Below, piece by piece: positions 1 through 64,000 of a stretch of DNA of 64,000 bases (positions within the stretch are counted from its first letter, which is position 1; every line of letters starts with the position of its first letter). Origin of the DNA: Pseudisothecium myosuroides (taxonomy: Eukaryota > Streptophyta > Bryopsida > Hypnales > Lembophyllaceae); assembly GCA_951799445.1 (NCBI GenBank), contig OX637290.1, positions 34,900,987-34,964,986 of the forward strand, read 5' to 3'. The notes under the pieces are model-generated. The model had not been told where the DNA came from, made no database searches, and was given only the letters and a program-made list of their open reading frames with translations. A program made the position numbers and the translations under genes.

Positions 1-3000
1 TTGATCCCAAGTTCGCGAGCTTTTGCAGAGCAAGGGTGCTGCATGCTGCAGTCTGTTGCGGGTGCACGTATGGCTGTTGTGGTGAATTGAGGGCTCAAGG
101 AGGGCGATTTCTCGAACTGTTGTGTTAGGATGACTGAATGTGGGAAGTAGCACTGCAATGCCCGCTTGTGCAGGATTTGTAGTGGGATTCTGACTTGTTT
201 CTCTGCTCTGGCAGTTGGTTTGGAGCCGTTTTAACTTTGAGCTCGTGGGATTGTGGTGGAAATTGCAGGACGGAGGTGAGATGCCAGCTGTTGCCGGAGA
301 AATGTTGTGTACTCTAGATGTGCTGTGAGCTGCAGCAGTCTGGATTTGGGGCCGGTAGCTGCAGCAGAGTTCGGTGCCAGCAGCCTAGATTTAGGGCCGG
401 TAAGATGTACCGAACCGATTGAGAACCCTAGTTTGTTTCGCAAAGTCGAAAGCGACTTTGCGATCACCTTTTCTTGCTTCACATTTGGTTTAGGGTGTGC
501 TGGAAATGGCCAAATCGGTTTAGGATATGTTGATTCCTGTCATATTCACCCAATACGAGCAAGAAGAAATGAGCCGTTTCACGAACTAGCGTTTACGATT
601 TTTGCTTCAGGAAATAGATTGAATGTTGTCACCTTGTTTTTCATTCCCGAAGCTATCGAACTGAAATTGAAATCTTTTTTGAGTGCGGATTTATATAAAT
701 AGTATAGCCGAGCGTGTGATTGTTAGGTTGCCAGATTCCAAGCACTCCGACATCGCACGTTATCTCAATTAGTGCGGGATTTTAGAATTACTCGGGTTCA
801 CTGTACCGAAGGAATTTCAGAGTACTAATGTCTATGTGATGACTGTGATCTGAGGTGCTGGTTTTGCTACTGCATGTAAATTTCTAACTAATAGCGTTGT
901 CACTGGCAGATGGCGTCGCATCATTGATTCACCTGTTGTAGAGGAAGCAGTGGATCAGCTTACGAAGAGTATATTACTAGTCTCTGGTATACCTCCATTA
1001 CTCCCGATCGAGAAGTACCCGAGGAACTGCGGATTCTCTTGAATGGCGTGATTGCCGAGGTTGCTAATCGTGCTAAGCAAGTGAACTTGGTCACGCTCCT
1101 ATCACAGTACGATTCTGTTAACCATCTAATTTATCATACTGCTAATTGATCGTCTTAAGTTTGTGATATTTTATTCTTATTGCCTTTTTTAGGCATACTA
1201 CTTACTTTCAGATCATTGTAGACCGTTCCTTTCGATTCTTTCTATGCTTGTCCCGCCAGTCTCTCTAAGGTGTGGGTATTTCTGGTCGTGAATAATTCCT
1301 CCAAAATTGTTGAGGAAATTTGATGACATCTGTGAGCTATACGTCAGGTTTTTGGTCTTGGCTTTTGTAGTCATTTGCGTTACCATGATGCAGAAAAGTG
1401 GTGGATCTAGTGGGAATTCATTTTGAACTCTTTCGGCAAATGAAGGCCAAGATTGGACCTGGCTTAATCGACTCAATGTCAACTGAAGAGAGGGATGAAA
1501 AGCTTAAGCGTGCCATAGATTGAACCTGGAGTTGGGAACTCGTGATTCGTTGGGGCCTTGGCAATCAGCATATCTCTAAGTTATTCATTGCTGATGAGTG
1601 CGTGGTTCCCTGTCTTCGAACCTTGAAAGAAGCTTGGGCCTGGAAGAAATTCACACTGATTCACGACTTTCCGACTCAGTACTTATTCCCGGGCAAAGCT
1701 AGAAAGAACTGCTCAAAGTGTGTAGTGTAGATGTGGTGTGAGCTGCAACAAAGGTCAGTGGCAGCAGTGGAACGGTTGACCCTTCACTCTTGATAAAACT
1801 GCTGGAAAGAGTAAATGCTCGTCATTAGCCAGAGTGTTCAGGAACTGAGGAGAGTTTGCTGCTGCTGCTATTGCAGATTTCTTGCTCTGCTGATGGACTT
1901 GGGTGGTTTTGCAGGGCGTGAAGACTAATGTGGTGCAGTGTAGTTACGACGATCATGTTATGGTTAGTTGAATTTATTCCGGATTAATTTCTTGAAGTTG
2001 CGAGGTTGCCTAGTCGAAGTGTTGGTTTAACCTAATTTCACCACTTGGGAACCTTAATTCTTTGGTATTTGAACAGTGTTTCCGGTAACCTCATGAATCT
2101 ATGTTTTAGTTGCGTAATGAAACAGATCCGTTGACGTAGGATAATATGATATCTGACATGGTATTGGTTGCAGATAATAGTAACACAAATTGGCAAGAGG
2201 GGTACCCTCTTTAACTTGCAAGGTGAATACTCCATGCTGCATAAAATGCTACTCGCAGTAGTGCTTCTCCTCGCTGAAAAACTACCGTTTCTGCAAAGGA
2301 GGGAGACTTGAGCAAGAGTCGAGCAGGAATGAACATGGCGAGATAGGTTCGCGACTCCTTGATCCCAAGCTCGCGAGCTTCTGCAAAGCAAGGGTGCTGC
2401 ATGCAGCAGTCTGTTGCGGGTGCACGTATGGCTGTTGTGGTGAATTGAGGGCTCAAGGAGAACGATTTTTTGAACTGTTGTGTTAGGATGACTGAATGTG
2501 GGAAGTAGCACTGCAATGCCCGCTTGTGCAGGATTTGTAGTGGGATTCTGACTTGTTCCTTTGCCCTGGCAGTTGGTTTGGAGTCATTTTAATTTGAGCT
2601 CGTCGGAGTGTGTTGGAAGAGGTGAGATGCCAGCTTTTGCAGGAGAAACGTTGTATTGACCTTTTGCAGGAGAGTAGAGTAGCGCTTGTTCCTTCAGAGC
2701 TTGCAGAGCGCGAGTAATTAATTTGCTGATTTATGATAATTTGGTGCGCACTTAGTGCAGTGTAGTGCAATTCAAATAGCAGGTCCTCTAACTCATCCTG
2801 GGTTTTCTTGGCTCAGGAGCAGATATGGGAGTTTCACAGACTGAGCAAGAAGAAATGAGCCGTTTCGCGAATTAGGGTTTAGGATTTTCGCTTGAGGAAA
2901 TTTTTTCAACTTGGAATTGGAAACTCGTGATATATTGCGGTCCGTGGCAATCAGCATAGCCATAAGTTATTCAATGCTGATGACTGCGTGTTCAGGGTCT

Positions 3001-6465: not shown

Positions 6466-7098
6466 GCTAGTTGTTGTATTCCAAACTATATATTTAAAAC
6501 TTTAAAAGCTTGACAATTTGAAGTAAATGTAAAAGACTTTATAATTTTAAGAGAATTGTTGGAGAATGCCTCCGCATTGGCTTTAAATAAAGGCCCTGAC
6601 TTTAATTTATTAAACCAGGGTTGGATGTTAAAGCCGTTTTCTACTGGATAAAGGTAGGGTGTTTATTTATTAAACCTCTATTGGATGCCACGTGGTTAAT
6701 TTGCGCTTTTGGGTTCATGGCTTCTTCCAATGATTATTAAAAAAGAAAGTTAATTGAATAATTTAACATTTTAATTTTGAATGCTAGTTGTTGTATTCCA
6801 AACTATATATTTAAAACTTTAAAAGCTTGACAATTTGAAGTAAATGTAAAAGACTTTATAATTTTAAAAGAATTGTTGGAGAATGCCTCCGCATTGGCTT
6901 TAAATAAAGGCCCTGACTTTAATTTATTAAACCAGGGTTGGATGTTAAAGCCGTTTTCTACTGGATAAAGGTAGGGTGTTTATTTATTAAACCTCTATTG
7001 GATGCCACGTGGTTAATTTGCGCTTTTGGGTTCATGGCTTCTTCCAATGATTATTAAAAAAGAAAGTTAATTGAATAATTTAACATTTTAATTTTAAA
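6466..7098. repeat. Recent 317-bp tandem duplication
   Basis: The unit starting at 6466 (GCTAGTTGTTGTATTCC) repeats at 6783, giving a period of 317 bp. The copies differ at only a few positions (for example TTTTAAGAGAAT versus TTTTAAAAGAAT). High identity implies recent origin or an assembly join. A TTAA-flanked MITE follows at 7166. Confidence 0.9.
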
Positions 7099-7165
7099 AT
7101 GATAGGTTAATTTTTAGGGTATGAGTTTTGAAATTTAAAGAACTAATTATCAAATTAATATTTAA

Positions 7166-8098
7166 CCCCTAAAAGACCGGCATGCATTTTTTGGTTGTAT
7201 AGAAATTTTGGCCAGGTATGTGTAACTAGAGATTTCTATATTTTAAGCTAAAATCTTAATAAAAGGTGGGCACAAGGAGTATCTTTCATATGCACTAAAT
7301 TTTAGCACATTTAAAAATAGTAGTCAAAAGTTATGGCCAAATATGTTATTTTTTTTTGTAACTGGGCAATTTGGGCACCAAAAAAAATTTAGCAAAGATT
7401 TGTTATTTTTTGTTTAATATATTTTTTTCGTAGATTATATTTATGTCTATTTGGAAAGCTTTGATTCATTTCATTTGGATTTGTTATGAGAAAGTTATGG
7501 ACATTCTTGTTTTTGGGGCAGTTAGAGCATCTTCTTGAAAAAAATAACTTGTAGAATTCATTTATGAATGCTCTTTTTGCAATTTTTCAAAAAGAAAATT
7601 TCTTATGGTTTAGTTTACTTGCTAGAAAAATCTGACCATTGGGATTAGTGTATTTTAATTCCATCAAGAATATATGAATATTTTAGATTTTCCTTGTATC
7701 TTGTACCTACTTCTACTTAATAAATTTTTTAGGAATGATAATTAAGTTTTTTTGAATATTATTTTTTTCCGTAGACTTTCAACTCAATTTTCCACTATAA
7801 AGATTTAAAGCTCAAAACTCTGTAGTGCAAAAATTTGGAGTTAAAAATGTTTAAAGTAAAAAAATCTATTCCCGGAATATGCTGAAATAATTGTTTTTTT
7901 CACTTTAAATGTAGATATCTTGCAATCTCAGCGGTTAAAAATTCTGAAATTTTTTCTACACATTCTCATACTAATTAGGTGTAAGATCTTACAGTAAAAT
8001 ATGCAAAAAAAACATTTTTCAAATTTTTTTACTCCTTGCTATAGAAATGGCAGTTTTCAATGTTTTTTGGTAGAAAAAAGGCCTCGGTCCTTAAAGGG
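7166..8098. mobile_element. piggyBac-like MITE copy A, TTAA-flanked
   Basis: Starts CCCCTAAAAGACCG after TTAA (7162-7165) and ends CGGTCCTTAAAGGG before TTAA (8099-8102), giving inverted ends of about 15 bp. The interior is AT-rich with no transposase. The same internal text (for example GAGAAAGTTATGGACATTC) recurs in copies B, C, E and M. Confidence 0.8.
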
Positions 8099-8102
8099 TT
8101 AA

Positions 8103-9363: not shown

Positions 9364-12300
9364 ATGGATGACTACGTTTTTCCTACACCAAAGGCACACC
9401 CTAAGCAGAAAGTAATCCGGCACCATTGCACATGTTGCAATGAGTACATGGTTGATGTACCCGAACATTGTAGAGGGAAGACTCATGTGCGCATGGCAAG
9501 CATCCATGACATTATTCCAGTTTTGCGGCGCTCCAATGTTGGTAAGTATATTTTTAACTTAATTCTTTGAACTTATAGTGTTTTATTAATTTAGTTTAAT
9601 GATTTTTATTATTATTAAAATGACTAAACACTTGTAGCATTGATGAAGTTTTTTTGGGAGGTGCATTTAAATTGCAAAAGAAATTATTATCTTTATTTAA
9701 CCCCTAAAGGACCGTTGTCCTTTTGTGGGAGAAATGCTTTTTTGGGCATGTACCTACTGGCTGAAATTTTGTTGTGATTTTTTGAAAATTTTTACAAAAA
9801 TAGAAAAACTAATAAGCTTTGTGGGAATATAATTTTTTTGCAATTAGTGGCCGCGAAAAAAAATTATGACCAAATAAGCTGAAAACAAGGGACGGAGGGC
9901 AGCTTGGGCAGCAAAAAAACAATAGACAAAAATTTGAATATTTTTTTTTATATATTTTTTTCTCAAAGATTATATTTTTGTCTATTTAGAAAGCTTTGAT
10001 TCATTTTATTTGGATTTCTTATGAGAAAGTTATGGGCATTCTTGTTTTTCGGGCTATTAAAGCATCTTCTTAAAAAAAATAACTTGTAGAATTCATTTTT
10101 GAATGCAATTTTCTCAATCTTTCAATTTTTTTTATATGGTCTAATTTATATGCCAAAAGAATTTCACCATTGAGATTAGTGCATTTTGATTCCATTTAAA
10201 ATATATTAATATTTTAGATTTTCCTTCTATTTTGTACCTACTTCTAGTTAACCATTTTTTTAAGAATGATAATTAAGTTTTTTTGAACTTTTTTTCTAGA
10301 CTCTCAACTCAATTCTCCACTATAAAAATTTAAAGCTCAAATTGTTGTAGAGCAAAAATTTTAAGTTAAAAATGTCCAAAGTAAAAAAATTTCATCCCGC
10401 AGTGTGCTGAAAAATGTGTTTTTTCACCTTAAATGCAAATATCTTACAATCTATGCGGTCAAAAATTCTGAAATTTTTTTCATACACTCTCATACTAGTT
10501 AGGTGTAAGATCCTACGATTAGATGTGAAAAAAAATAATTTTCAATTTTTTTTATTCTTTGCTATAGATATGGTTGTTTTGACTATTTTTTGGCAAAAAA
10601 AAGTTCTTGGTCTTTTAGGGGTTAAATTTTTTATATATAGGAATATACTTTTTATGAATACAAAATATTATTTTGATTGTCTTTAACTCAATATTTTTTT
10701 CCTTGCAACAGATTGGAAGGACAAAACGAAGAAAAAAATTCGTTGTTTTACATGTAACTGTGATTTGCCGCTTAAGACAGAGCATCTGCAAAATCACATT
10801 GCCAAGCATGTTGTTACCATTGAAGATCGTGCCCTTCCTGCGACTTCGATATATGTAGGCCCTACACATGCTACACTATACGAGGTCACGAAGATTACAC
10901 GAACCGAGGAGTTTTGGAAGACTTACATTCCAGAAGATGAAGATCATCAACAGATTTATTCTCCGGCATCTATTCGTGACCCTTTTGGAGAGCTTGTTCA
11001 TCTTGTGAATGGCATTTTTACTCCAGAGGAGCTCTCATTTTTGGCAAAGGAGGCGAAATGGCTGGAGAGGACTGCGAGACTTACGAAGAGGGGAACGCTA
11101 AAAGAGGGAAGTCGAATGGTCACTTTTGGCGTCCGTTACAAATACGGAAAACTAGCTTGGTAAGTGTTTCTTTTGTTTATGAGGTGTTTTTTATATAAAT
11201 TTTTATAATTTATAAATTATTTTATTTTATCTTATTTAACCCCTAAAAAACCATTGTGCCTTTGGGGGACAAATGCGTTTTCGGATAGGTACCTATGGGC
11301 TGAAATTTTGGTTGTGATTTTTAAAAAAAAAATTTGGGGAGATAGAAAAATTGATAAGCTTTGTGGGAATATAATTTTTTTCACAATTGGTGCCCTGGAA
11401 CAAAAGTAATGACCAAATAAGCTCAAACGAGGGGACAGGGGGCAGCCAGGGCAACAAAAAAAAATGGAGAAAAATTTGAATTTTCTTTTTTAATATTTTT
11501 TTCTCATAGATTATATTTTTGTCTATCTGGAAAGTTTTGATTCATTTCATTTAAATTTTTAATGAGAAAGTTATGGACATTCTTGTTTTCCGGGCAATTT
11601 TCGGGCAGTTTTGGGCAGTTTCGGGCAATTTTCGGGCAGTTTTCGAGCAGTTTCGGGCAGTTTTCGGGCAGTTTCGGGCAGTTTTCGGGCAGTTTCGGGC
11701 TGTTTTGGGGCAGTTTTGGGGCAGTTTTGGGGCAGTTTTGGGGCAGTTTCGGGCAGTTTCGGGCAGTTTTTCGGGCAGTTTTTTACTTTTTGTTATAGAT
11801 ATGGCAGTTTTGAGTGTTTTTTGGGCAGAAATAAGGCCTTGGTCCTTTAGGGGTAAAATACATTTTTCTAATGAATTGAACTCTATGCAGGTACAAACAT
11901 TCAAATCCAGAGTGTTATATCCGATCGGAGGCTTTTGCGACAATCGTGGCAAAAGGGTTAAAAAAGAATTTTCCTTCTATCTTTGAGCATTTGGAAAATG
12001 CTCGGGCCAAGGAGAATATGCAGTCGGGTGACAGCCGTATAGGAGATTCTCCATTTTCTTGTCTTGCTATGACAAAGGACTACAAAGTGAAAGCTCATTG
12101 CGACAAAAATGATTTTTCTTATGGGTTTTTTCTTTGGCTTGGTGAGAGTGGTAAGTTTTAATTTCCCATGCTTATTTTTATTTAATTGTCTTTTAATTGA
12201 ATGCATTCATCATACTACTAAAATCACAAGGTCCTCTTTAATGTCACATTTTTACACTGTGTGATATTACAGAGTCCCAATCCCTTTATAATATCACCTT

Positions 12301-12895
12301 TTTACACTGTGTGATATTATAAAGTTTTAACGGGCGCTGCGCCTCTGTAATATCACACAGTGTAAATTTGTGATATTACAGAGGTACAGTGATATTATGA
12401 AGGTTTAAGTTTTCTTGGCTTCACACTTCATTTCACTTCCACAATTCTATGATTTTCTAAGCTTTGAGTGTTCCCAATTCTAATGTTTTGTTCTTACTAT
12501 CAAATGATTTGTGACTTTGAGATTGAAGCAATTTTGGTTTTATATAATATATAAATTTCTAAAAATGTTTGTTTGAATATTGTACAGGTACTTTGCAAAA
12601 TGGCAATGGCGTTCGATTTTATCTTCCAGAGTTGGGCTATTTTTTTGAGCCACAGGTTGGGGACGTTATGCTTATCAAAGCTGGCGAAATTCATCATTGT
12701 ACGAGGACTACAGGAGAGGTTGGCCAACTTGGTGTAGCTCTTTGTCTGCATGCCAATCTACTTGAGTGGTGGCAAAATATTATTAGCAATGTAGAAAAAT
12801 TCAAGGAAGGCGTTGAACTAGAGGAAAAGGATTTGACTAGAGTTATCCATTGGTTGGATAACAATCGCATCTACCAAGCATGTACTCGGGTATGA
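9364..12895 (+). CDS. Zinc-finger TET/JBP-like 2OG-Fe(II) dioxygenase, four coding exons, 397 aa
   Basis: Exons are 9364-9541, 10712-11159, 11891-12150 and 12588-12895. All junctions are GT-AG and the total of 1194 nt stays in frame to a TGA. The N terminus has two similar modules, C22-x2-C25-x9-H35-x5-H41 and C71-x2-C74-x9-H84-x3-H88 (H92 also near), likely zinc-binding. The C-terminal half matches the Tet-like 2OG-Fe(II) oxygenase pattern known from fungi and algae: the HxD iron motif H278-C-D280 in AHCDKNDFSYGFFLWLGE, then VRFYLPELGYFFEPQVGDVM, then the distal histidine in GEIHHCTR (H331 or H332). Relatives oxidise 5-methylcytosine or thymine in DNA. The usual 2-oxoglutarate arginine about ten residues after the distal His is Gln342 here; R335 might substitute. 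The start is the first ATG after a splice acceptor at 9346, so 5' UTR exons must lie upstream. Substrate and activity are inference. Confidence 0.8.
9701..10621. mobile_element. piggyBac-like MITE copy B, in intron 1 of the dioxygenase gene
   Basis: Begins CCCCTAAAGGACCG after TTAA (9697-9700) and ends TGGTCTTTTAGGGG before TTAA (10,622-10,625). It is 921 bp, with no coding capacity, and is closely related to copy A in the interior. It makes up most of the 1170-bp intron. Confidence 0.85.
11240..11853. mobile_element. piggyBac-like MITE copy C, in intron 2, containing a minisatellite
   Basis: Left end CCCCTAAAAAACCA follows TTAA (11,236-11,239). Right end CTTGGTCCTTTAGGGG is followed by TAAA, a decayed TTAA. 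Part of the usual interior is replaced by the GGGCAG repeat array at 11,585-11,785. It fills most of the 731-bp intron. Confidence 0.8.
11585..11785. repeat. Minisatellite of about 10 bp, TTTCGGGCAG and variants
   Basis: About 18-20 units of TTTCGGGCAG, TTTTCGGGCAG and TTTTGGGGCAG in a row. Related MITE copies have a single CGGGCAATCT-type motif at this place, so the array probably grew by slippage from that seed. Confidence 0.9.
12233..12384. mobile_element. Hairpin MITE in intron 3 of the dioxygenase gene, three nested palindromes
   Basis: Arms 12,233-12,274 and 12,343-12,384 are near-perfect inverse complements (outer ends CCTCTTTAATGTCAC and GTGATATTACAGAGG). Between them 12,283-12,323 is another palindrome, CTTTATAATATCAC paired with GTGATATTATAAAG. 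All modules share the core TTTTTACACTGTGTGATATTA. The target duplication is unclear and the family is not recognised. Confidence 0.75.
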
Positions 12896-12970: not shown

Positions 12971-13093
12971 TTGCAATATTTTGACTGGATTTTTTTAATT
13001 AACAAGTCTAAATTGACTTATTGTATCTAAATTGAGAAAAAATGTACCAATCAATAACAAGTTGACAAAAAAGTCTGAATTGACACATCTTAA

Positions 13094-13935
13094 TCCCTAA
13101 AGTTTTTTAACTATGTTTTCACCAAAAATGCTCCAAAACTGCCATTTCTAGTACAAGTTCCAAATTCTTCAAAAATATCTTTTCTAAACATATATGACCA
13201 TAGGATGTTGTAGTACTTTGGTTTGAGAATACATGAAAGAAAATTCAAAAATTTCCATCGTATAGATTAGAAAAAATTAGCGTTTGAATTGGCAAAAGTC
13301 CTTTTTTTGGCCTTGCGGAAAACCGGGCAGCTGTGTGGCTATATGCTTGAAAATTTTCAGATTATTTGGAATTGTATAACATATAGGAAAAAAATAGTTA
13401 GTACAAAAAAATAGAGAATGGTTCAAAACATTAAATTGTTAAGAAGTTAATTATGGAATTAAAAAATGTCAATTTCAATGGTTGCCATGTTGTAATACAC
13501 AATGTACATACTACAATTTTTATTTTTTTTGAAAAATATTGAAAATTGAGTGAAATAAACAACTTCAAAGTTTATTTTAGAGTAGACAATCCATAATTGC
13601 CTGCAAACTAAAAATCTTCATAACGTTTGACTCATTGATCAAAATGAAATGATTCAAAGCTTTCCACGTATACATAAAATCTAATAAACCAATTTCAATT
13701 TTTTATTTTTCAATTTTTTATTTTTTTTTCTGATCTGTCCAAACTGCCCGAATTGAGAAACAAACAACATATCAGGCCATAACTTCTGACTCGCATTTTC
13801 AAATGTCATGAAATTTAGTGTGTATGAAAAATATTCCTTGTCCCCACCTTCTATCCCAAATAAGCAAATTTCTAATCACTCGTACTTGCCCAAAATTTCT
13901 ATGTTGTCCAAAAATGCATGTTGGTCCTTTAGGGA
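13094..13935. mobile_element. piggyBac-like MITE copy D, TTAA-flanked
   Basis: Begins TCCCTAAAGTTTTTTAAC after TTAA (13,090-13,093) and ends GTTGGTCCTTTAGGGA before TTAA (13,936-13,939). The interior matches copy K at 40.5 kb rather than copies A-C, so these two form a subfamily. Confidence 0.8.
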
Positions 13936-13939
13936 TTAA

Positions 13940-16007
13940 TAAAAAAAATGCACAAATAGTTATGTCCAAATTGATAGAGAATGTTAAAATTAATAGTAAT
14001 TACTTCTCCTTGAAAAACTAGAAATAACTAAAGCTTTGTCAAACTCTTTGTAGAGTGCATTTGCATTAGGAACCTCCATACCCAAAATACATTTGTAAAT
14101 TCTAAGAGTATTTATTATTTCTATACATTAAATTCTTAAAGTAGCTAATGTCTCTTATCTAATTAAAAAAATCCATCACAAACTGCTAATATTACATGTT
14201 AGAAGTCAAAATTGCTTCAAAAATTTAGTATAAAAAAAATGCTTATATTTCAAATTAATACTTATTTTTAAGAAATTCAAGCACTAAGCCCTTAGTGAAC
14301 TTTGGAAAGTACACCTTCCTAAAGTTAAAAAAAAATATTTCCCAATAATAAGATCATGATGCTTGGATTTTCAATAAAAAATTATATTCAATTCTTCCCA
14401 AATGGTTAGGTTTCATCTTTCAAACATCTTATAGAAAATCCTTAGATTCTACAATTTGTTGCTTTCTAGAATATATTGAAGAAAAAGTTGGGATATATAT
14501 AAAAATTCTCAAAAGAAATTTATATTTATACTTAAAAAAATAGTAAGTAGAACGAGATAGGGTTTGCTTCAAAACACTATATTATTAGGAATTTAGATAT
14601 GGAACTGAAAAATTTAAACTCTAATGGATGTAATGTTGTATTAACCAATTTACATCTTTTCCATACTTTTGAATTTCTTTCTAGAATATTGGAATTTGAG
14701 TGACATGCAGTTTTTTATATAAGTAGTGTGTGTATCTATGTATATATATCTCTATATCTGTGTGTGTTTGTGTATGGGTACATGTATGTGGGTATATATG
14801 TCTGTGTTAATGTAGAACAAACTTTTTATCTAAGAAGAAAGTGAAATTTTTGAATTGCCTATGATTTAGAATCAAAGAGTAAGTGAAGTTGTTTCTTGAA
14901 GTTTTGACATTAATTATTCACATAAATGAGAAGCTAAATGATCAAAACAACACTTCAAAGGACTTTAATCATGATAAAAAATAAATATGACCATTGGAAC
15001 AATTAGAAATTATTAATCACAAAGTTCTTAATGTGTTTTAAGATTGAGTGCACTACAAGAGAAGGGGGTGTATTTAGGATAATAGATTAGTATGAGATTG
15101 CTGAAATTTGTTTCAATGTTCCTGATAGGTCACGTTGAATATAGAAAATGAATAAAGTGAAGTATTGAAATACTTATCGGTCGTCACTTCTTTAACGGTC
15201 GGCTGCTCTGCTAACTACCCAGCGCACACGCCAGTTTAACGCCACGCCATCCGCCATCCACCTGGCCAAGTGGCAAATTGCCACAGGCTGATCCCAAATT
15301 TCCTAGCGGTTGGCATTGGTTGAGGAGCTCCCCCACACACTTGAGCTTATCCCACTGCCCCACGCCATGGAAAAAAACACAGATGCGCTGAAAATAATTT
15401 TAAAAACATACTAGTGTGCCGTTGCTACAACCAAAATATAAGCAATAGAACTTTTTTAATTTGAAATTTGAAAATAAATGTGTAATGCACAAAGGAGTGC
15501 AAGGGTTTTATTGCAGGGTGAGTTTGCATACGAATAGAATAGAATATGAATAGAAAGCTTTATGTACAAAGGAATGCAAGTTTGTGGCGTTTGGACATGC
15601 AATGTAAAAATAATGTTTTTCTAAAATAGAAGATAATTTTACTTTGATTTTTTAATTTACAAAAATACATAATTTTCACACTGTAGGTCCAAACGCCACA
15701 AAAACTTGCACAAATAGAAAGCTCTATGCATGAAATAGTGCAAGGGCGTTACGACATGTGATGTGAAAGTTATGTTCATTACAAGATAAAAGATAATTTA
15801 ATTCAGTTTTTTATTTAAAAAAATTCTATAACTTTCACTCCTTAGGTCCAAACGCCAAAAATTGATGCAAATTAAAAAACTCTAGGTATGAAGAAATGCA
15901 AAAGGCTTTGCTTCATGGCATTTTTTTAACATGTCCGCACTGGTTCCATTTATTGGTGCAATCTTCATTGCTTGATGGATACCTCATTTGCATTTATATT
16001 TCATTAA
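13940..16007. other. No gene seen; AT-rich, TG/TA microsatellite and two small hairpin repeats
   Basis: No exon with family motifs. A TATATG/TGTG-rich microsatellite lies at about 14,725-14,810. A CACTA-like end (CACTACAAGAGAAGGGGG) is at about 15,051. From 15.58 to 15.88 kb there are two small inverted repeats (listed separately). Confidence 0.45.
15580..15880. repeat. Two adjacent hairpin repeats with ends related to GGCGTTTGGAC
   Basis: The first hairpin pairs GCAAGTTTGTGGCGTTTGGA near 15,580-15,590 with TCCAAACGCCACAAAAACTT at about 15,687-15,706. A second, weaker unit follows, from GCAAGGGCGTTACGACATG (about 15,740) to GGTCCAAACGCC (about 15,846-15,857). The interiors also resemble each other. 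They look like small MITEs or a duplicated foldback element. Confidence 0.65.
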
Positions 16008-16841
16008 TCCCTAAAGGCCCCAAGTCCCCTCCGGGGACACTTGGGATTTCGGGCAGGCTTGTGCGACCTAAAATTTCGACCTGTTTGTTTAAAACTTTTT
16101 TTGAAGATAGGTGCCCAAAGATTTTTAGCTTTCCAGAAATATAATTTTTTTTTCAATCGGTGCCCGGGAAAAAAAGTTATGCTGCCCAAAGTCAAAAAAG
16201 CCGTTCGTCGGGCAGAAAAAAAAAACTTAAAAAAATTGAATTTTTTTTTTTGATTTTTTTTCTCAAAGATCATGCTTTTGTCTATATTTGAAGCTTTGAT
16301 TCATTCTAATTGGACCCAAAATGAGAAAGTTATGGACAATCTTGTTTTTCGGGCAATCTAAGCGTCTTCTTCAAAAAAACAACTTATAAAATTCATTTTT
16401 GAATGCAATTTTCGAAATTTTTCAAATTTTTTTTTGAAAAGGTTAAGTTTGTTTGCAAGAACAATCCCAAAATTGGGATTATGGTTTTTTAATTCCATCT
16501 AAGAGCTATTGAAGATTTAGTGTTTTGTTCAATTTTGGACCTACTTCTACTTAACAATTTTCTTATATGTGAAAATCAAGTTTTGACATTCTGAAATCTT
16601 TTTCCCCGGCTCTCAACTCAAATGCTCAACATAAAAAATTTTAACTTTATGGTGTGTAGTGCAAAAAAAATCCACAAATGGCCGTCAAAGTCATCTGAAA
16701 TTGCAATCCAGAGTTGTGAAGTATAAGATCCTATGGTTAGATTCAAAAACAATTTTTTTTTTTTGGTTTAGGGAGTGATTGCAGCAGAAATGGCAGTTTT
16801 AAGTGTTTTCGGAGCCAGAAACTGCCTTGGGCCTTTAGGGG
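16008..16841. mobile_element. piggyBac-like MITE copy E, TTAA-flanked
   Basis: Left end TCCCTAAAGGCCCCAAG after TTAA (16,004-16,007); right end CTTGGGCCTTTAGGGG before TTAA (16,842-16,845). The termini are inverted and the interior is related to copies A-C and M. No ORF of note. Confidence 0.85.
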
Positions 16842-16845
16842 TTAA

Positions 16846-19496
16846 TAAGCAAAATTAAGCAAAGTTCACAATATGGTCAAATTGACCTCATTAGCTAGGG
16901 GTCCATTAAAAAATATACTTTAAGACTTTAAAACAAATTCAAAAATGTATTGAATGCAAAAGTCAATTTCAATTCTATCTTCATTTGCAAGTATTAGGTA
17001 TTGTCTTGCAATTTTAAAAGAAGGAATTTCCTTGATAATGGAAATTCCAATGAATTAAACAAGAAGCCTCAACATTTGACCACTTTATCAAAAAAAAATT
17101 AATAGTCACGATACAAAATTAAACTGAACATGGTGGATCTCACATGGGAAAAAAAACGATCACTTATGGATTAAAAGATTATAATGTTTGATTGTGAGGG
17201 TGTTAAAATTCTGAAAGTGATTTCATGGGTGATTTTAAGTCTTCCTATCGTCTTTTGATATGCCAACTCTAAAAAATCAATACCATAAAAATTTGAACTC
17301 TAATTCTGGCATCTAAAATCTTTTTTTGAAAATATATGATTATGATTTTTTGTGTCCACAATTGTGTGCAAGGGTGTCCATTGCAAATCTTGATGTCCTA
17401 GTATTCAATTGAGCCTAAAGTATACATTACTTTGGAAAATAAATCGTATTAGAAATTTACTTAAAAAAATTGTAGAGTAGTAGATTTTGAGAAGCCGTCA
17501 ATTGATTTGGGTTATGCATAGAACGCTCTTGAACCTCTTATTTTTTTGGTGACCAATTTCTTCAATTTAACATGTGAAAAGAGTTTTGAAGGACTTCAAA
17601 ACACTTTTACAGATTTAGGGTTTCCATTATCAAACATTATAGTCTTTAAGTCCATAAGTGGTATTGTGGTATTTCCTTGTTTGATGAGAGTTCTCAAATA
17701 ATTATGTGTCCTTTGAAATTGTATGGTTATAATTTTTTTTTTAAATTATAAAACTTATTTCAATGTTCGTTTTTTGTTGAATTTAGAACGACTTTCCTTA
17801 GTGATCAGAAAAGGCCTCCAATATTATAGAGATTAAGTAACCATTGAATTTCAAGTTCAAAAATTTGTAACTAATTCTATGAAGGTCCAAAATATATGAA
17901 ACAACTTTGTGCACATGTCAATTCCATTTTACTTCCTACAAAGATGTACTAAGAAATTGTTTCAAGGAGTCTAGCTTCCTCCAAAAGGTAATGAATTCTT
18001 AAATGGTCGCTTCAACAACTAAAGAAATTAGTCTTTAATTTGTTTCCTAACTCTTATATGAAACAACATTGAAAAGAAACAACATTTCTGTACATCATGT
18101 ACATTAGTACCTACAAGGATACCACAAAATGAATAAAAAGTAAAATTTGTCGTGCCTATCCCCACCACGCGATACAATTTCCGGGTGAGGTTTTACCCAT
18201 GTTTGATACCGTGCCACAATCTTGTTTGATACCCATGTGAAATTGATACCCTGTAAAATTAATAAAAATTAGTTCCATTTGGCAACAGACATGTAGTATC
18301 CAAATCAACATAATATGTTGCCTTTTCACCAACATTTACATAGTTGACACCAATATGTGAAAACGGTCATTACAGTGCCCAAATGAACATAAAAGTGTTC
18401 ATTTTTTGTTGATATGGACGCCATTTTCTAGTAGTGTTAGCTATAATGTTTTGGCTCAAGAGTTTGTTGACAGTTGCTTTTGGCCTATTTTTCTTGATGG
18501 TGTTGATCTAAAATGTTGGAAATCAAAATTTTACACCTTTTCGCATATGATTCTTAAAAACTAAGAAAAAAAAATTTGAAATATTAATACCTCCCAATCC
18601 CAAAACCATCATAAGTAACAAAAATGCCAAATCAATAGGCTCTACACCTTTGAATCTTTTACTACAGTGCTGTTGGAGATTGCTTTTCAATTGGCGGCTT
18701 CAGCCATCTTAAAAATCCATTGGTAGGGTGGTTTTGGCAGATTGAAAAAGGTCAATGTTCAAAGTGTGCATCCCTCATGCATGTATGCATGATGCTAAGT
18801 CCTTCATTTGAAGTGTGCTGAGCAATTTGGATTTTCCTTGGAGGAAAACATAAGAATTTTTTTGGTTTTGCAAAATTCATTTTCTGCAAATCCTACATTT
18901 ATATTTGCAATCAAAAATACCAAATAATTAGTTGTAGAGAGGTCTAAAGCGTATCCTAGACACGGCTCAAAATAGGAGTCTTTGTTCCACTTTTACCTTA
19001 GAAAACCCAGAATTTACCTTGCTAGGCCTATTTTGGATGTAAGATTATTTGGCTTGCCAATTGGCTCTTGAATATTACAATAGGGCCATGAAGTTGACTC
19101 CAATGTATGCAAAATTAGATTACAATTGAATCCACATTCAATTAGAAAAAATGTTGAATCAAACAATAATAAGTCTTTGCTTTATAAGAGCAAAAATCTC
19201 CAATGAATATCACTTATAGTAGAGTTCCTTTGTACAACTTTATGTCTTGCCACATCATTTCAATATTCCTTTTATCCTAATGCATAAAATTGGACATGTC
19301 AATGCCAGTTCCTGTTACATCTTAATTGAAAGTTAAAACAATTAAAAAATTGCAAAAAATTCTAAAAGTGTCCAATGGTCTTATAATTTTGTAGTTAGGT
19401 GTTTTCTTCTATAGAAAATACATACTTATTATAAAAACAAAATGAACACCCCGTACTAAAGAATTGTTGAAGATTTTGTATATTGGGGTTCTTTAA
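16846..19496. other. No gene seen; transposon fragments
   Basis: About 17,100-17,330 is similar to the interior of MITE copy L (42.2-42.5 kb), so it is probably an internal remnant. The sequence TTTTCTAGTAGTG at about 18,421-18,436 is a right-hand CACTA terminus without an identified partner. The rest is AT-rich and non-coding as far as I can see. Confidence 0.45.
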
Positions 19497-20477
19497 TCCC
19501 TAAATGCGAGAACTATGTTTTGGGGGAAGATAGCAATTTTGGACAGCTGACTACAAAAGGAGTTTTTGTTTCTTTTCTTTGGAAATTATATACAATGTTT
19601 GCCAAAGGAGAAGCTTTAAGGCCCAATTGTTTTCATAACTTTTGACTATGTGGTTAAAAAGTTATTGCATGATGTATGTTTTTCAATGCTTGGTAGGTAG
19701 GCTGGGCAATCCAAAAGTCTTCTTTAAAAAAAACTTTTTTAAAATGCAAAAACTTGAAATTGAGTCTTTAGATTTACATACACGTGGAAAGCTTTAAATG
19801 ACTTTAGTTTGATAAATGGCTTGAAAGTTATGACAAGTTTTAGTTTATGGCTAGATATAGTTTTCAAAGATTCAATATTACCCACAAAGTAAAGTTCTTC
19901 ATAACATTCAATGCATTTATCAAAATGAAGTGATGCAAAGCTTCCCACATGTATATAAATCTAAAGAATCAATTTCAAATTTTGGCTTTTTAGAAAAGGG
20001 ATTTTTGAAGAAGTTTGTTGGGCTACCCACCTTAAACCGCCAAGCAATGAAAACCACATATCATGCAGAAACTTTTTAACCACATTGTCAATTCACATGA
20101 AAACTATTGGGCCTCAAAGCCACTCTTTAGGCACACGTTATGTGAAATTTTCAAAGAATAAAAAAGAAAACTCCTAAAACTTTATAGTGAGCTGCCCAAA
20201 ATCACAATGTTTCTTGCCCAAAAACACACTTCTTGCATTTAAAGGTGTTAGATCTTCGACATCATCTACCTCTTCATTCACAAAATTGTCCAATTCACAA
20301 CACATACATCATCATTCACAAATGAACTGCGGTAAACTAACCTTTTAGGTTTGTTCATCCTCCGTTTAATCCCTAGGAAATACAAAGTAAAACATAGTGA
20401 ATTTTTTTTATACATCGCTTTCATGAAAATACCCTGAAATTAGCTCATGTATGCCATTTGCTAACATCCTAAAGGGG
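19497..20477. mobile_element. piggyBac-like MITE copy F, TTAA-flanked
   Basis: Begins TCCCTAAATGCGAG after TTAA (19,493-19,496) and ends ATCCTAAAGGGG before TTAA (20,478-20,481). A second TTAATCCCTAGG start at about 20,364 suggests a nested or rearranged copy near the right end. Confidence 0.7.
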
Positions 20478-20481
20478 TTAA

Positions 20482-36100: not shown

Positions 36101-36646
36101 ACCCCCCTAGTTGTCTGGCATTGCTTAACAATGTTATGTACTGTGCTGACCACTAGATCCCCATCTTGTCCTATCGTGCACAAATCAGTGCACATAGCAA
36201 CTAGCTGACTTTGTATATTTATGGTTTGTTATGTGAGAATAAAGCTTTGTCTACCTACAATGCCCTATAATGTCAGGGAATACCTATCAAAATTGGGAAG
36301 CACTAAAAGAGACAGAGCAGTACAGCCGACTCGTGTGCTTGAAGCTTTGGGGCTTTTGTAGTTCCATCCATGTGCACCGTGGAGTATTTTTTTTGTTGAA
36401 ACAAATGAAATGGAATTTCATTGCTAAATAAAGATACAATACCAACAGCCATAAGTGTCCCACACTCTTCATTTTGTCCACAATGAATCTGCGGGACGAA
36501 CCTCCTCAATGCCCTCATAGAAGATGTTTAGAATTGGTCCAGCCACCATTCATAAGACATGAGACTACATTGATTCTTGTATTTGTCTAGACTAGGTACA
36601 CCATATAAGTGAACACACCGGGCACATCCAAGCACTCTTCCCTTGC
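33176..36646. other. No supported gene; possible LINE-like 3' tails near 36.0 and 36.4 kb
   Basis: A short open frame at 33,257-33,457 on the plus strand (GRRGGKIQIRHVSYNDVHFE) has no recognised family. On the minus strand GCAATGAAATTCCATTTCAT followed by TTGTTTCAAC and an A-run (about 36,380-36,430) and a related inverse-oriented pair near 35,985-36,075 resemble 3' tails of plant LINEs, but no reverse transcriptase was seen. An AT microsatellite lies at about 35,510-35,540. Confidence 0.35.
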
Positions 36647-36676
36647 TTGTCCCCATTTCAAGCATTAGCACTTGTA

Positions 36677-37609
36677 GTCATGAATACCACGGTTGGAGAG
36701 GGTGCGTTCAGTAAGGCCTTACTGTTGGGTGAGAAGTACAAAGATGAGGTGATATCTTTAGCCAACAACTTCGGACCCTTCAAGCTACTTTTGGAGTCTA
36801 AAGAAGAGATGGAGAATCTAGAAACAAAGCATGGAACTAGTGATCGAATTGGTGGTGAGCTTATTCCGCACTCTGAAGATGGATTTGAATTTATAGCGGG
36901 TGCTAGCTCGCTTGACTGCACAACTCCTTGCATGAGTGTGTTCAACAGTGTCTTGTTTTTAGATGAGAAGGATGAGGCCAAGCTTGTATCTTTAGATGAT
37001 GTTTTTGAATCTTTTGAATTGGATATGTTATTGGAGTCCCAAGGGGTGATGGACAATAGCAGTGAGCACAAAACTGGACATCTGGTTCAAGATAAGCTTG
37101 CTGTACACACTGAAGATGAGAAGGGTGTAGGGATTGCAACCATATGCCAAGGGTTTCGACCTTTTGAACCAATTCTGCTATCAGAGTTGGAAGGGGACAA
37201 AGATCACCACAGATTTGGGCAGTTAGTTCAGGATGAATTAACTCCACGCACTAAAGATTGGAAGGGCAAAGGGATTGCAACCGAGCCCTATTGCGTGGGC
37301 AAGGTGAAGAGCAACAAGGAAATACGAATTGGCAACAACCATCCAACACTGAAGCCCAAGCAAGAGCGTCATCAACCATACACATTAGCCTTGCGCTCAA
37401 AGGTGACTCCATCAAATTACAAAATGTCCTACTGTGAGCTTCTTCGCCTAGGTCCTAAGTGTAACTCAAGGTACAAAAGGCAAGCTCAGCACATTTCAGG
37501 AGCATTCAAAAGTACATCATCCTTGTCAACCCCAAGCATTTCCAGTAATGTTCAGGGTTCAAATAGACCACCAACTGGATCGCAGGTGTTGAAGCCTTAC
37601 AATAGGTGA
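36677..37609 (+). CDS. Unrecognised ORF of about 310-320 aa with internal repeats
   Basis: This is the longest uninterrupted plus-strand frame in the window, starting at an ATG at 36,677 or 36,647 and ending at a TGA (37,607-37,609). It contains imperfect internal repeats: GHLVQDKLAVHTEDEKGVGI and GQLVQDELTPRTKDWKGKGI, with a weaker GGELIPHSEDGFEF. The C-terminal third is basic and Ser/Pro-rich. No signal peptide, membrane segment or catalytic motif is visible. Acidic repeats plus a basic tail fit a plant-specific or transposon-derived protein, but I do not recognise it. No splice partners are evident. Real translation is unproven. Confidence 0.4.
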   Translation, partial: VMNTTVGEGAFSKALLLGEKYKDEVISLANNFGPFKLLLESKEEMENLETKHGTSDRIGGELIPHSEDGFEFIAGASSLDCTTPCMSVFNSVLFLDEKDEAKLVSLDDVFESFELDMLLESQGVMDNSSEHKTGHLVQDKLAVHTEDEKGVGIATICQGFRPFEPILLSELEGDKDHHRFGQLVQDELTPRTKDWKGKGIATEPYCVGKVKSNKEIRIGNNHPTLKPKQERHQPYTLALRSKVTPSNYKMSYCELLRLGPKCNSRYKRQAQHISGAFKSTSSLSTPSISSNVQGSNRPPTGSQVLKPYNR

Positions 37610-41450: not shown

Positions 41451-42117
41451 TTGTATACCATAGAAATCTACACCTGAATGATTGGAAAATACTTGCATTT
41501 AGTTGAAATTTCTTGTGATATTGACATACCACCTTCAAGTTATGAACAAAAAATTAATAGTTCCAAGCCAAAAAATTGTTGCAATAAACACTTGTCCTTT
41601 AATTTTACTTTTGTCCCCTTGGCCTTGCATAAGTAGTTATTTACTCATAACTTTTGTATTGTATGTATGTTTTCTATGAAATTTGAAATGAAGGTATCAA
41701 CGCTGGTTTTAGACATTGAATAATTTTATAAATCTTTTATAAATAATTTCCTATTTTAAAACTACCTCAGAATGGATGTCTACCGTGGCCATTTTGCAAG
41801 TTTTCTATATTTTTTCTAACCCTAAAATCTCTTCTTGGGGTTGTGTGACTTTAGTAGAACTCTTCATATCCCAATTTTCACCATAAAATTTGCATTTTAT
41901 AAAAACAATAATGTGTCTAGCTTGCATATGTGCTCAAAGTGCCCAGCTTGCTATTTTTGCGCACGTGCAGAGAATACAATGTTTTTTCCCAAAAAAACTC
42001 TGTAACAAAAACAAGCATCTTTAAGTTAGCAAACTTTAAAAAAAATTATATTTTTAAAAAGTTGACTCTTTTGTAGTTTGCACTAATTGTCAATTCTCAA
42101 GCAATCAGCGACATTAA

Positions 42118-42754
42118 CCCCTAAATGCCCAAGGCCTATTTTGAGCCTCTTAGAATTTACTCTAAATTGAACAAAAAGCCAACATTTTGATAAGTTGAAT
42201 CAATTTTAAAAAAAAATTGTAATTGTACAAATTCAAACTAGACATGTTAGAGATCACATAGGAAAATAAAATACAACAATATCATTTAAGGATTGAAAGA
42301 TTATAATGTTTGATCATCAAGGTATTAAAACTATGAAAATCTTTGAGCTCTCTTTTTGCATCGCAAATCTAAAAATTTCAAGACCAAAAAATATGAGGTT
42401 GAAGGGCCTAACAAATATAACCCCGATCAATTTATGACTTCTAAAAATCTATTCTACAATTTTTTTAAATGAATTTCTAGTGTGATTTTTCTCCAAGATC
42501 TAGTGTATTTGAAGCTCATTTCCAAGAGCCCTCAACACTACAAACAGTCAAGATTGCAATGGGTACCTTTGTAGAAAACTTTGAATAGAAAAATCATTAT
42601 CATTCATTTTTAAAATCGGATTTTTGATGCTAAAACTAGACTTCAAAAAGAATTGATCAAAAATATAAACTACTAAAAGTAGCAGTTTGATAAGGTTTTA
42701 TTCAACTTCAAAGTTTCTTCGACACCACATTTAGGTGCCTTGGGCATTTAGGGG
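42118..42754. mobile_element. piggyBac-like MITE copy L
   Basis: Left end CCCCTAAATGCCCAAGGCC follows TTAA (42,114-42,117). Right end GCCTTGGGCATTTAGGGG is followed by CTAA. The terminal inverted repeat of about 17 bp is among the clearest in the window. Its interior differs from the A-C type and matches fragments at 17.1 and 24.9 kb. Confidence 0.85.
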
Positions 42755-43112
42755 CTAAGTCCAATTCTCACAAAATCTCTACGGGATTTCAGGTGGGCAT
42801 TTCAGAATTAGGGTTTTCCATATCCGTCGACTCCGCTTGTCGGGTTTAAGGATTACAATTTCCTTGTAGACTTTGGAAGTGCTCTAGAGCGTGTCAAGAA
42901 TTATAGCAAGCTCAGGATTTCCTCTCTCAAACGGTGTGCTGGAGAATCGGACAGGTTGATTAGAATTTCTGAACTTGCTGGGAAAGAGTTGACTCTGTTG
43001 CACCCTGCTTTTGAATTTGGTGTCAAAATTTTTCTATCTGCTGCGGATTGTGGAGAGTTGGCGTGGAGACGAGGTTTGAGAGTTTGTCGACGGCCTATTT
43101 GATTGAATCGCC

Positions 43113-49473: not shown

Positions 49474-50511
49474 CTGTAGAACCTCTCTTAGTGCATAGTG
49501 CCGGAACTAAGTTATGCACTAAGAGAAGTTTATGCATTTGGAGAGGTTACATTTGTTTAAGTCTGTTAGAAAATTATATTTTTTTGCGAGTTGGAGCAAT
49601 ATTGTAGGACAACTCAGTTGAAATTGGATCCACCTACGAGAAAGATTGACAACAAAAATAACAAGGAGCACATGAAGAAATTAACTGCCCATCCAGGCAA
49701 GCAAGGTGGAGATGAAGACACCTGGGATGAGAAGGTACTAGAGAATACTACAGTAGCTCTATAATACTGTAGGCATGGGACTAGGTCAAAGTCAGCTCCC
49801 TAAACTTAACCCCTAAAGTCCCATTAGCCCTACGAGGGCCAAAATGCAAGTTTGGGTAGGCTCGCACAGTTTCAATATTCATCATAATTTTCTAAAACTT
49901 CTTGTAAAGCTAGGAAAACACATAAGCTTCTTGGGGATATAATTTTTATTTCAATGAGTGCTTGGAAGTAAAAGTTATTGCACAAAAAGCCAAATATGGA
50001 GGTCGGCGGGCAGCCCAAAAAAAATCACAAAAAGTCAAAATAATTTTTTTTAAATTTTTTTCCTAAAATATTATATGTTTGTCTACATGTAAGACTTTGA
50101 TTCATTCTATTTGGACTAGTGATGAGAAAGCTATGGACAATCTTGTTTTTCCGGCAATCTTGAAAAAAAACTTTTTGCCCAACTTTGAATGCTAATATCT
50201 TCCAATCTGTACGGTCAAATTTGATGAAATTTTTACCACATGATCTCAGACAAGTGAAGTATAAGATCCTATGGTTAAATTCTTAAAAAAATGTTTTTTT
50301 TGCTTTTATGGATGAATGCAGCAGAAATGGCAGTTTTGAGTGTTTTTTGACAAAAAAAATGACCTTGGGACTTTAGGGGTTAAGGCTTAGATTTATTGTA
50401 CCTTTATGAAAATGTATTTCAAATTAGCCCCCACCCACAAACCTCTCTTATTGCATATTATGCACTAAGAGAGTATGCATTAAGAGAGTATGCAGTAAGA
50501 GAAGTTCTACT
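49474..50511. mobile_element. Emigrant/pogo-like MITE with a nested piggyBac-like MITE
   Basis: Left end GTAGAACCTCTCTTAGTGCA (49,478 onward) pairs with right end GCAGTAAGAGAAGTTCTAC (50,490-50,508). The same ends occur twice near 25.6-26.3 kb. The element is split by TTAA-flanked copy M, so it was here first. Extra GCACTAAGAGAG and GCATTAAGAGAG motifs before the right end look like terminal slippage. Confidence 0.65.
49810..50379. mobile_element. piggyBac-like MITE copy M, TTAA-flanked, 570 bp
   Basis: Left end CCCCTAAAGTCCCATTAG after TTAA (49,806-49,809), right end TGGGACTTTAGGGG before TTAA (50,380-50,383). Both target copies are intact. It is a shortened relative of copies A-E nested inside the Emigrant-like element. 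Confidence 0.9.
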
Positions 50512-63647: not shown

Positions 63648-64000
63648 CTGATTTCACGATTCTTGAATGTCAACCAAATTGTAACATTCTTCTAATCAAA
63701 CTCTCAATCATCTCAAGACATAGTTAGGGTGAAGAAAAACTAAATGCGCGATAATAACTTGGAAGGCAGAGGATTAACAATTAGTTTCATCTCAATTCTT
63801 GCCTCATCTTATCTTAAGCTTTACTTATCTCCACAGCATGCCCATTTATCTTTTTACTTTATCTAATTATAGGTCTAAAGTAAAATTAGACAACTGTAAT
63901 CTAATCTCAGACACTCGCAATCAAATTCAAAACAACAATCCCCAATGCTGTCCGGAGCTTACTAGTTAGGAATTATCTTTGAAAGTGCTCTCCTAATATA
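63648..64000. other. No gene seen
   Basis: AT-rich sequence upstream (in transcription sense) of the HIRA fragment. I looked for preceding HIRA WD40 exons and found none in these last 350 bases. Confidence 0.4.

What the first reader, a model, noticed from the sequence alone, without database searches (positions are those of the whole stretch)
9364..12895. Plant gene encoding a TET/JBP-like dioxygenase with two N-terminal zinc-finger-like modules
Four exons join without a frame break into 397 aa that pair C-x2-C-x9-H-type fingers with the HxD ... LPELG ... GDVM ... EIHH layout of Tet-like 2OG-Fe(II) oxygenases. This class is known from animals (TET), kinetoplastids (JBP), fungi and green algae. 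Flowering plants use DNA glycosylases, not TET enzymes, for demethylation. A finger-TET fusion in a plant genome could mark an oxidised-base pathway or a transposon-carried DNA modifier.
Basis: partly seen in the sequence, partly recalled or inferred. Interest (0 to 1): 0.9.

Follow-up and report, generated by a model that had tools for sequence, protein, structure and literature searches.

The report
Plant TET/CMD1-like DNA oxygenase gene
The window holds an open four-exon gene, in what is very likely a plant nuclear genome, whose protein matches the TET/JBP family of iron enzymes and would likely modify methylated cytosine in DNA, possibly with vitamin C as one green-alga relative does; papers of 2019 and 2024 describe such enzymes as unidentified in plants.

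Summary
Four exons (9364-9541, 10712-11159, 11891-12150, 12588-12895) join at GT-AG borders into an open 397-aa frame with two CxxCx9H modules and a Tet/JBP core. The core scores 37.5 bits against Pfam Tet_JBP, cut-off 34.9; the full protein 34.8. The best solved relative is Chlamydomonas CMD1. Exon-wise searches found three metagenomic ORFs, probably of two contigs, 61-81% identical, whose ends read into the same intron borders: a conserved gene family. One lacks the iron-binding Asp. Introns 1 and 2 carry repeats also found at five other places between 7 and 50 kb, and a HIRA-like fragment lies at 63 kb, so the gene is resident. Iron and cytosine-reading residues are kept. The Arg that holds 2-oxoglutarate in TET is Gln (Arg in 39 of 40 viral proteins, one gap), and the Trp that blocks 2-oxoglutarate in CMD1 is present here and in both relatives that cover it. 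I infer CMD1-like, vitamin-C-dependent 5mC modification, with moderate confidence; several other CMD1 vitamin-C contacts are not kept. Species, expression, copy number and activity are untested.

The parts
9364..9541 (+). Exon 1: start codon, finger-like module 1 (C22, C25, H35, H41 at 9427-9486)
   Evidence: GT donor at 9542; open frame. Acceptor-like TTTGCAG ends at 9346, so the true 5' end is uncertain
10712..11159 (+). Exon 2: finger-like module 2 (C71, C74, H84, H88/H92 at 10744-10809), start of the oxygenase region with R201-Y202 (11134-11139)
   Evidence: CAG acceptor, GTAAGT donor, frame kept; its end is aligned by hhalign to phage Tet_JBP proteins
11891..12150 (+). Exon 3: HxD iron motif H278/D280 (12096-12104), base-reading D283 (12111-12113), CMD1-type W291 (12135-12137)
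   Evidence: Pfam Tet_JBP residues 222-334; 81% and 74% identical metagenomic ORFs P0004, P0005 that run on as the window's own donor would read
12588..12895 (+). Exon 4: LPELG, VGDVM, distal iron His H332 (12695-12697), Q342 (12725-12727) at the 2-oxoglutarate Arg position, C348, H350, stop codon 12893-12895
   Evidence: 61% identical metagenomic ORF P0003, which begins as the window's own acceptor would read; hmmsearch alignment to CMD1
9542..10711 (+). Intron 1 with a TTAA-ended repeat at 9697-10625
   Evidence: GT-AG; repeat ends TTAACCCCTAAAGG...TTTTAGGGGTTAA
11160..11890 (+). Intron 2 with a repeat of the same family at 11236-11857
12151..12587 (+). Intron 3
   Evidence: GT-AG; same position inferred in P0004 and P0005 (donor) and P0003 (acceptor) from their protein ends

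Best explanation
This is a four-exon gene of a nuclear genome, very likely a plant's, whose predicted protein belongs to the Tet/JBP family of iron oxygenases, carries two zinc-finger-like modules, likely modifies 5-methylcytosine in DNA, and would by its pocket residues use vitamin C, as the algal enzyme CMD1 does, rather than 2-oxoglutarate. Shown here: the frame, the family match, the iron-ligand motif, the resident repeats in its introns, and relatives whose ends agree with the same intron borders. Inferred: the fingers place the enzyme on DNA; H278, D280 and H332 hold Fe(II); D283 reads the cytosine amino group as CMD1 D350 does; W291 and the missing Arg (Q342) exclude 2-oxoglutarate and leave room for ascorbate, so the product would be a glyceryl-type 5mC adduct or an oxidised 5mC.
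For: Tet_JBP match; changing H278 or D280 to Ala in silico costs 6.8 and 4.7 bits, so these are conserved columns of the family. CMD1 is the best PDB match, E 0.0077 with the protein and 0.0017 with a profile of four rows; the only other PDB row in each search is unrelated (phage head protein 0.091; CHMP1a 0.31). Mapping through those alignments onto the residues listed in PMC7854593 (section 9 and part 1 of section 11 read): H345=H278, D347=D280, D350=D283, H397=H332, T337=T270, W358=W291, T399=T334, V342=V275, F371=F306; R410=Q342, F416=C348 (F in P0003), R418=H350 (His as in TET2 H1904/NgTET1 H297). W is kept in both relatives that cover it (P0004, P0005) and Q342 in the one that covers it (P0003). 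W291 to Ile raises the family score by 2.3 bits, to Ala by 0.2, so Trp is not the family norm. The column of Q342 is Arg in 39 of 40 viral proteins aligned, the other being a gap. CpG observed/expected is 0.545 across the window, which fits methylated CpG. Ungapped 61-81% identity and matching exon ends point to selection on the protein.
Against: CMD1 vitamin-C contacts S335 and S414 are Ala here, and H249 is Lys (K206) if R201-Y202 is R244-F245, an unproven register; H249A abolishes CMD1 activity. T334 is not CMD1-specific, since T is also the viral residue (39 of 40). The W column is a gap in all 40 viral proteins, so no column-wise comparison was possible; no Trp occurs in the 20 residues printed from the HxD motif in any of the 40. 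The Pfam profile scores better when H332 is changed to Ala (+1.8) or Gly (+2.3) and rewards an Arg at 341 (+1.5) slightly more than at 342 (+1.0), which favours a register with H331 as ligand; neither 341 nor 342 is Arg here. Q342R alone changes nothing, and D283N, T270A, T334A and H350A change the score by 0.7 bit or less, so the profile does not speak for those residues. P0003 (IWHC) and the spacing from GD favour H332. P0005 has HRN instead of HxD, a change that kills CMD1 (D347N). C348 replaces the stacking Phe/Tyr in this copy. No structure model, expression or activity data. Pairs of repeat copies show no clear excess of C-to-T at CG (8 of 37) or CHG (20 of 67) over CHH (180 of 733), so methylation of them is not shown.
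Confidence: 0.45

Rival explanations
1. A conventional TET-type enzyme: it oxidises 5mC to 5hmC, 5fC or 5caC with 2-oxoglutarate, using another basic residue in place of the usual Arg.
For: Family match; H350 matches the 5mC-reading His of TET2 and NgTET1 (PMC7854593); 5hmC and 5fC were measured in Norway spruce DNA without a known enzyme (PMC6917789, passages). Other 2-oxoglutarate oxygenases hold the co-substrate from other strands (recalled).
Against: Gln at the anchoring Arg position, also in P0003, and Trp at the CMD1 blocking position.
Confidence: 0.3
2. A mobile-element passenger, as in fungi where transposons carry TET/JBP genes to escape silencing; this is a resident or decaying copy.
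For: Fungal precedent in many transposon lineages (PMC12730594, abstract and passages); repeat-rich surroundings; inverted copies of the TTAA-ended repeat family on both sides of the gene, for example 7162-7480 with 13638-13939 at 69% identity; P0005 has a broken iron motif.
Against: Those inverted copies belong to repeats that each have both ends of their own (7162-8102 and 13090-13939), so they need not be the ends of one element. No transposase among 112 scanned ORFs of 67 aa or more. Two further repeats sit inside the introns. One copy in 64 kb. Genome copy number untested because the genome search was unreachable. On re-checking I raised this from 0.15 to 0.18.
Confidence: 0.18
3. The oxygenase acts on another substrate: thymine to 5hmU as in JBP, methylated RNA, or protein.
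For: 5hmU has been measured in spruce DNA (PMC6917789, passages); substrate cannot be read with certainty from sequence.
Against: D283 aligns with the cytosine-reading Asp of CMD1, an Asp also in NgTET1, and CMD1 does not act on thymine (PMC7854593).
Confidence: 0.12
4. Contamination or a misjoined contig, for example from a fungus or alga.
For: Species unnamed; Tet/JBP genes are known from fungi and green algae.
Against: Sequence similar to the repeats in introns 1 and 2 occurs at five other places of the same window (about 7.4-8.1, 16.0-16.7, 22.4-23.3, 39.5-40.2 and 49.9-50.2 kb), and a HIRA-like fragment lies at 63 kb.
Confidence: 0.04

Closest known systems
CMD1 (5-methylcytosine-modifying enzyme 1) of Chlamydomonas reinhardtii, PDB 7cy4-7cy8
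   Same: Best solved relative by sequence; same iron triad, base-reading Asp, Trp358, Thr337, Thr399, LPxLG strand
   Different: Only 80-90 residues align, weakly (E 0.0017-0.0077); Ser335 and Ser414 are Ala, Arg410 is Gln, Arg418 is His, Phe416 is Cys (Phe in P0003); His249 probably not kept
Phage Tet_JBP proteins (Stenotrophomonas phage DLP_6, Caulobacter phage Cr30, and IMG/VR relatives)
   Same: Same family by Pfam (two phage proteins) and by hhalign to the window core: 128 columns, 31% identity, probability 96.9; the window side effectively used 2 of its 4 rows; R-Y-x-Y and HxDxxD shared
   Different: Of 40 aligned, 39 have Arg at the Q342 position, Tyr at 348 and Arg at 350, one a gap; no Trp in the 20 residues printed from HxD
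TET2 and NgTET1
   Same: HxD...H and a His at the H350 position, by comparison with residues listed in PMC7854593
   Different: There both 2-oxoglutarate Arg residues are present; here the second is Gln. Neither came up in the PDB sequence searches at E up to 10
Fungal transposon-borne TET/JBP (PU, AG, PE types; PMC12730594)
   Same: Family name only; sequences not compared here
   Different: No transposase seen here

Membership tests
Tet/JBP dioxygenase family (Pfam PF12851) | Score above the curated profile cut-off | tested here: met
   Core 37.5 vs 34.9 bits; the full 397 aa miss it by 0.1 bit, 34.8
Tet/JBP dioxygenase family (Pfam PF12851) | HxD...H iron ligands | tested here: met
   H278, D280 and H332 (or H331); P0005 lacks the Asp
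Tet/JBP dioxygenase family (Pfam PF12851) | Arg that anchors the 2-oxoglutarate C5-carboxyl (common, though unused in CMD1) | tested here: not met
   Q342, with G341 and L343 beside it; Q also in P0003
Tet/JBP dioxygenase family (Pfam PF12851) | Double-stranded beta-helix fold | not tested
CMD1-type vitamin-C enzymes | Trp at the 2-oxoglutarate-blocking position (W358) | tested here: met
   W291, kept in P0004 and P0005
CMD1-type vitamin-C enzymes | Other vitamin-C contacts (H249, S335, T337, T399, S414) | tested here: inconclusive
   T337 and T399 kept; S335 and S414 are Ala; H249 outside the aligned stretch, Lys by an unproven register
CMD1-type vitamin-C enzymes | Ascorbate-dependent 5gmC formation | not testable with these tools
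   Needs an assay
Animal TET | CXXC domain (recalled as a mark of TET1/TET3) | tested here: not met
   No such Pfam match in the protein at E up to 1
Transposon-borne TET (fungal type) | Transposase and terminal repeats around the gene | tested here: inconclusive
   No transposase in the 112 of 150 listed ORFs given to Pfam; short or broken ones would be missed. Inverted copies of the local repeat family flank the gene but each lies in a repeat with its own two ends

The most novel reading that the evidence does not exclude
Plants outside the green algae carry a finger-guided CMD1-type enzyme that writes a vitamin-C-derived glyceryl mark (5gmC) on methylated DNA: a DNA modification pathway of land plants fed by one of their most abundant antioxidants.
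Probability: 0.28. Interest if true: 0.96.

Novelty: new variant of a known kind. Interest (0 to 1): 0.83.

Why it matters
[quoted passage not shown] PMC11233409, 2024, passages), although oxidised 5mC forms are reported in spruce and Silene DNA, and 5hmU in spruce. A conserved plant Tet/JBP gene would give that unexplained chemistry a candidate enzyme that can be expressed, assayed and knocked out. If the vitamin-C reading holds, 5gmC, known from Chlamydomonas, would extend to a second green lineage. Searches for prior reports; their listings showed no plant Tet/JBP gene by title or abstract start, and most listed papers were not opened. The main family survey (Iyer 2014) and the CMD1 commentary (Aravind 2019) are not held, so an earlier mention of such a gene in early plants cannot be excluded.

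Tried and rejected
Full-length protein search: 1,099 candidates, none at E up to 10, probably because exon-sized metagenomic ORFs fall outside its length filter; exon-wise searches then found 1 of 2 candidates and 2 of 2. Viral contigs with the window protein: 4 pattern matches, no relative. tblastn on phages: 75 records at E up to 10, 20 shown; Stenotrophomonas phage DLP_6 (E 1e-6) and two records of phage Cr30 (E 0.4) are the Tet_JBP ones; the other 17 shown match residues 103-193 at E 2-3, mostly annotated as capsid or head protein, and are taken as chance; the same stretch gives the head-protein matches in PDB (0.091) and PHROGs (0.011). Phage profile against PDB: no TET, one row at E 2.9. 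Upstream half of the oxygenase against PDB: nothing. A UBP-like fragment at 55.5 kb suggested by eye got no support and is dropped. Neutral-decay simulation: if the intron-1 repeat inserted as long ago as it split from its nearest copy (126 of 728 bases differ), the chance of a frame without stop or indel and without selection is 0.0015; at half that age 0.02, at a quarter 0.14. The insertion age is unknown, so this is only suggestive. Rust-fungus origin was considered because of fungal TET transposons; set aside for the long introns and the HIRA wording, both judged from recall.

Counts dropped: of 303 ORFs of 55 aa or more, 297 passed a complexity filter, 150 (67 aa or more) were listed and 112 given to Pfam; ORFs over the gene itself were among those left out. 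Pfam found five families at E up to 0.01, one member each, none a transposase. Of 44 viral/phage loci (42 plus L001, L002), 4 gave no usable ORF; L041 and L002 come from records of the same length and give the same motif strings, so the 40 are not all independent.
Full report
What is there. Four exons on the + strand, 9364-9541, 10712-11159, 11891-12150 and 12588-12895, join at GT-AG borders without a frame break into 397 residues. Exon GC is 0.43 against 0.26-0.36 in the introns, and first codon positions are richest in GC (0.515), as in real coding sequence. None of 20,000 Markov random sequences of the same make-up stayed open. The start is uncertain: an acceptor-like TTTGCAG ends at 9346.

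Family. The only Pfam family near its cut-off is Tet_JBP, at residues 222-334: 34.8 bits for the whole protein, just under the curated 34.9, and 37.5 for the core alone; Rep_trans, WelO5 and the Tet-like 2OG family PF20515 appear far below theirs. PHROGs gives one strong match, a family of unknown function at E 5.9e-11, and two weak ones at 0.011 and 0.042. The best of the PDB sequences is CMD1, the 5mC-modifying enzyme of Chlamydomonas, E 0.0077, improving to 0.0017 with a profile that includes the metagenomic relatives. Two phage proteins annotated as SNF2 repair proteins are Tet_JBP by Pfam and align with the window core over 128 columns at 31% identity, probability 96.9.

Relatives. The full-length search found nothing. 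Searching exon by exon, as unspliced eukaryotic DNA would appear among metagenomic ORFs, found P0003 for exon 4 (61% over 98 aa, E 3e-32) and P0004 and P0005 for exon 3 (81% and 74%). P0003 and P0004 both come from a contig of 2,228 bases, presumably the same one; P0005 from one of 7,193. The DNA of these contigs was not seen. P0004 and P0005 run on as ...SGKF, which is how the window's exon 3 reads when followed by its donor GTAAGTTT; P0003 begins ...FEYYTG|TFQ, as the window's acceptor region reads (FEYCTG|TLQ). So intron 3 very likely sits at the same place in other genomes, and the aligned exons have no gaps. This is a conserved gene family, not a chance frame. P0005 has HRN in place of HxD, so at least one copy is probably inactive.

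Is it resident? BLAST of the window against itself shows a family of 0.6-1 kb repeats with ends TTAA(C/T)CCCTAAA and its inverse. One lies in intron 1 (9697-10625), one in intron 2 (11236-11857); sequence similar to these two occurs at five other places from 7.4 to 50.2 kb, and further repeats with such ends lie at 13090-13939, 19493-20481 and 42114-42758. Some copies lie in inverted orientation on the two sides of the gene, such as 7162-7480 and 13638-13939 at 69% identity; each belongs to a repeat with its own two ends, so I do not read them as the ends of one element that carries the gene, but I cannot exclude it. A fragment at 63.2-63.6 kb matches Protein HIR1 at E 9e-11 (two neighbouring exon pieces joined by me). 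The gene therefore belongs to this eukaryotic genome.

Pocket. I mapped CMD1 residues from PMC7854593 (section 9 and part 1 of section 11 read) through the PDB alignments. Iron: H345, D347, H397 = H278, D280, H332. Cytosine: D350 = D283, F416 = C348 (F in P0003), R418 = H350, a His as in TET2 and NgTET1. Co-substrate: the second 2-oxoglutarate Arg of TET2 (1896) and NgTET1 (289), R410 in CMD1, is Q342, also Q in P0003; W358, whose side chain takes the place of that Arg in CMD1 and blocks 2-oxoglutarate, is W291, kept in P0004 and P0005. The register is supported by the spacing +6 aromatic and +8 His/Arg from that Arg in TET2, NgTET1 and CMD1. Of 40 viral Tet_JBP proteins aligned, 39 have Arg at the Q342 column and one a gap; none shows a Trp in the 20 residues printed from HxD, though the alignment leaves a gap at the W column itself. 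Profile tests partly agree: Trp to Ile gains 2.3 bits; an aromatic residue at 348 carries the match to the end of the profile; an Arg then adds 1.0 bit at 342 and 1.5 at 341, while Q342R alone adds nothing. Against: the vitamin-C contacts S335 and S414 are Ala here, H249 is probably not kept, and Thr334 is not specific. The profile also scores better with H332 changed, which would make H331 the ligand and 341 (Gly) the Arg position; P0003 has Trp at 331 and His at 332, so I keep H332. In either register the Arg is missing.

How it would work. The two modules share the spacing C-x2-C-N-x7-E-H and look like a duplicated zinc finger that would place the enzyme on DNA; they match no Pfam family. 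The core would flip out 5mC, read its amino group with D283 and attack its methyl group through Fe(II). Whether ascorbate or 2-oxoglutarate is spent is the open point; pocket residues favour ascorbate. CpG is depleted to 0.545 of expectation in the window, which fits a genome with methylated CpG; repeat copies show no clear extra C-to-T at CG or CHG, so this is weak.

Known and new. [quoted passage not shown] Fungal transposons often carry TET genes (PMC12730594, abstract and passages), but no transposase was seen here. I call it a new variant of a known kind.

Limits. The genome search did not complete, so copy number in the genome is unknown. No structure was predicted. Species, expression and activity are untested.

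Noticed in passing
7162-8102, 9697-10625, 11236-11857, 13090-13939, 16004-16845, 19493-20481, 42114-42758, 49806-50383 and inverted copies near 22.4-23.3 and 39.5-40.4 kb: A family of 0.6-1 kb repeats with inverted ends TTAA(C/T)CCCTAAA; the TTAA at both ends recalls piggyBac-type target sites (recalled, not tested). The pattern TTAAYCCCTAAAG occurs 24 times at up to 2 mismatches, 5.7 expected.
   Followed up: partly
6466-7098: Tandem duplication of 317 bp at 99% identity, so recent.
   Followed up: no
11585-11782: Array of an 11-bp GTTTTCGGGCA unit, about 18 copies, inside the repeat in intron 2.
   Followed up: no
928-1146 (+): ORF with a PXA domain (38.6 bits, cut-off 27), likely a fragment of a gene for a PX-associated protein.
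   Followed up: partly
63192-63653 (-): Exon pieces of a HIRA-like histone chaperone.
   Followed up: partly
59178-60737 (-): Two adjacent ORFs (340 aa, acidic and coiled-coil-like by eye; 178 aa) without a Pfam match at its cut-off; possibly retroelement gag-like.
   Followed up: no
36596-37609 (+): 337-aa open frame without any Pfam match.
   Followed up: no
58144-58689: Inverted repeat with 179-nt arms, 89% complementary, 188 nt apart.
   Followed up: no
L001:1377-2723 and L002:1494-2822: Phage proteins deposited as 'SNF2 DNA repair protein' are Tet_JBP oxygenases by Pfam and show no SNF2 match at E up to 0.1: a likely misannotation.
   Followed up: yes
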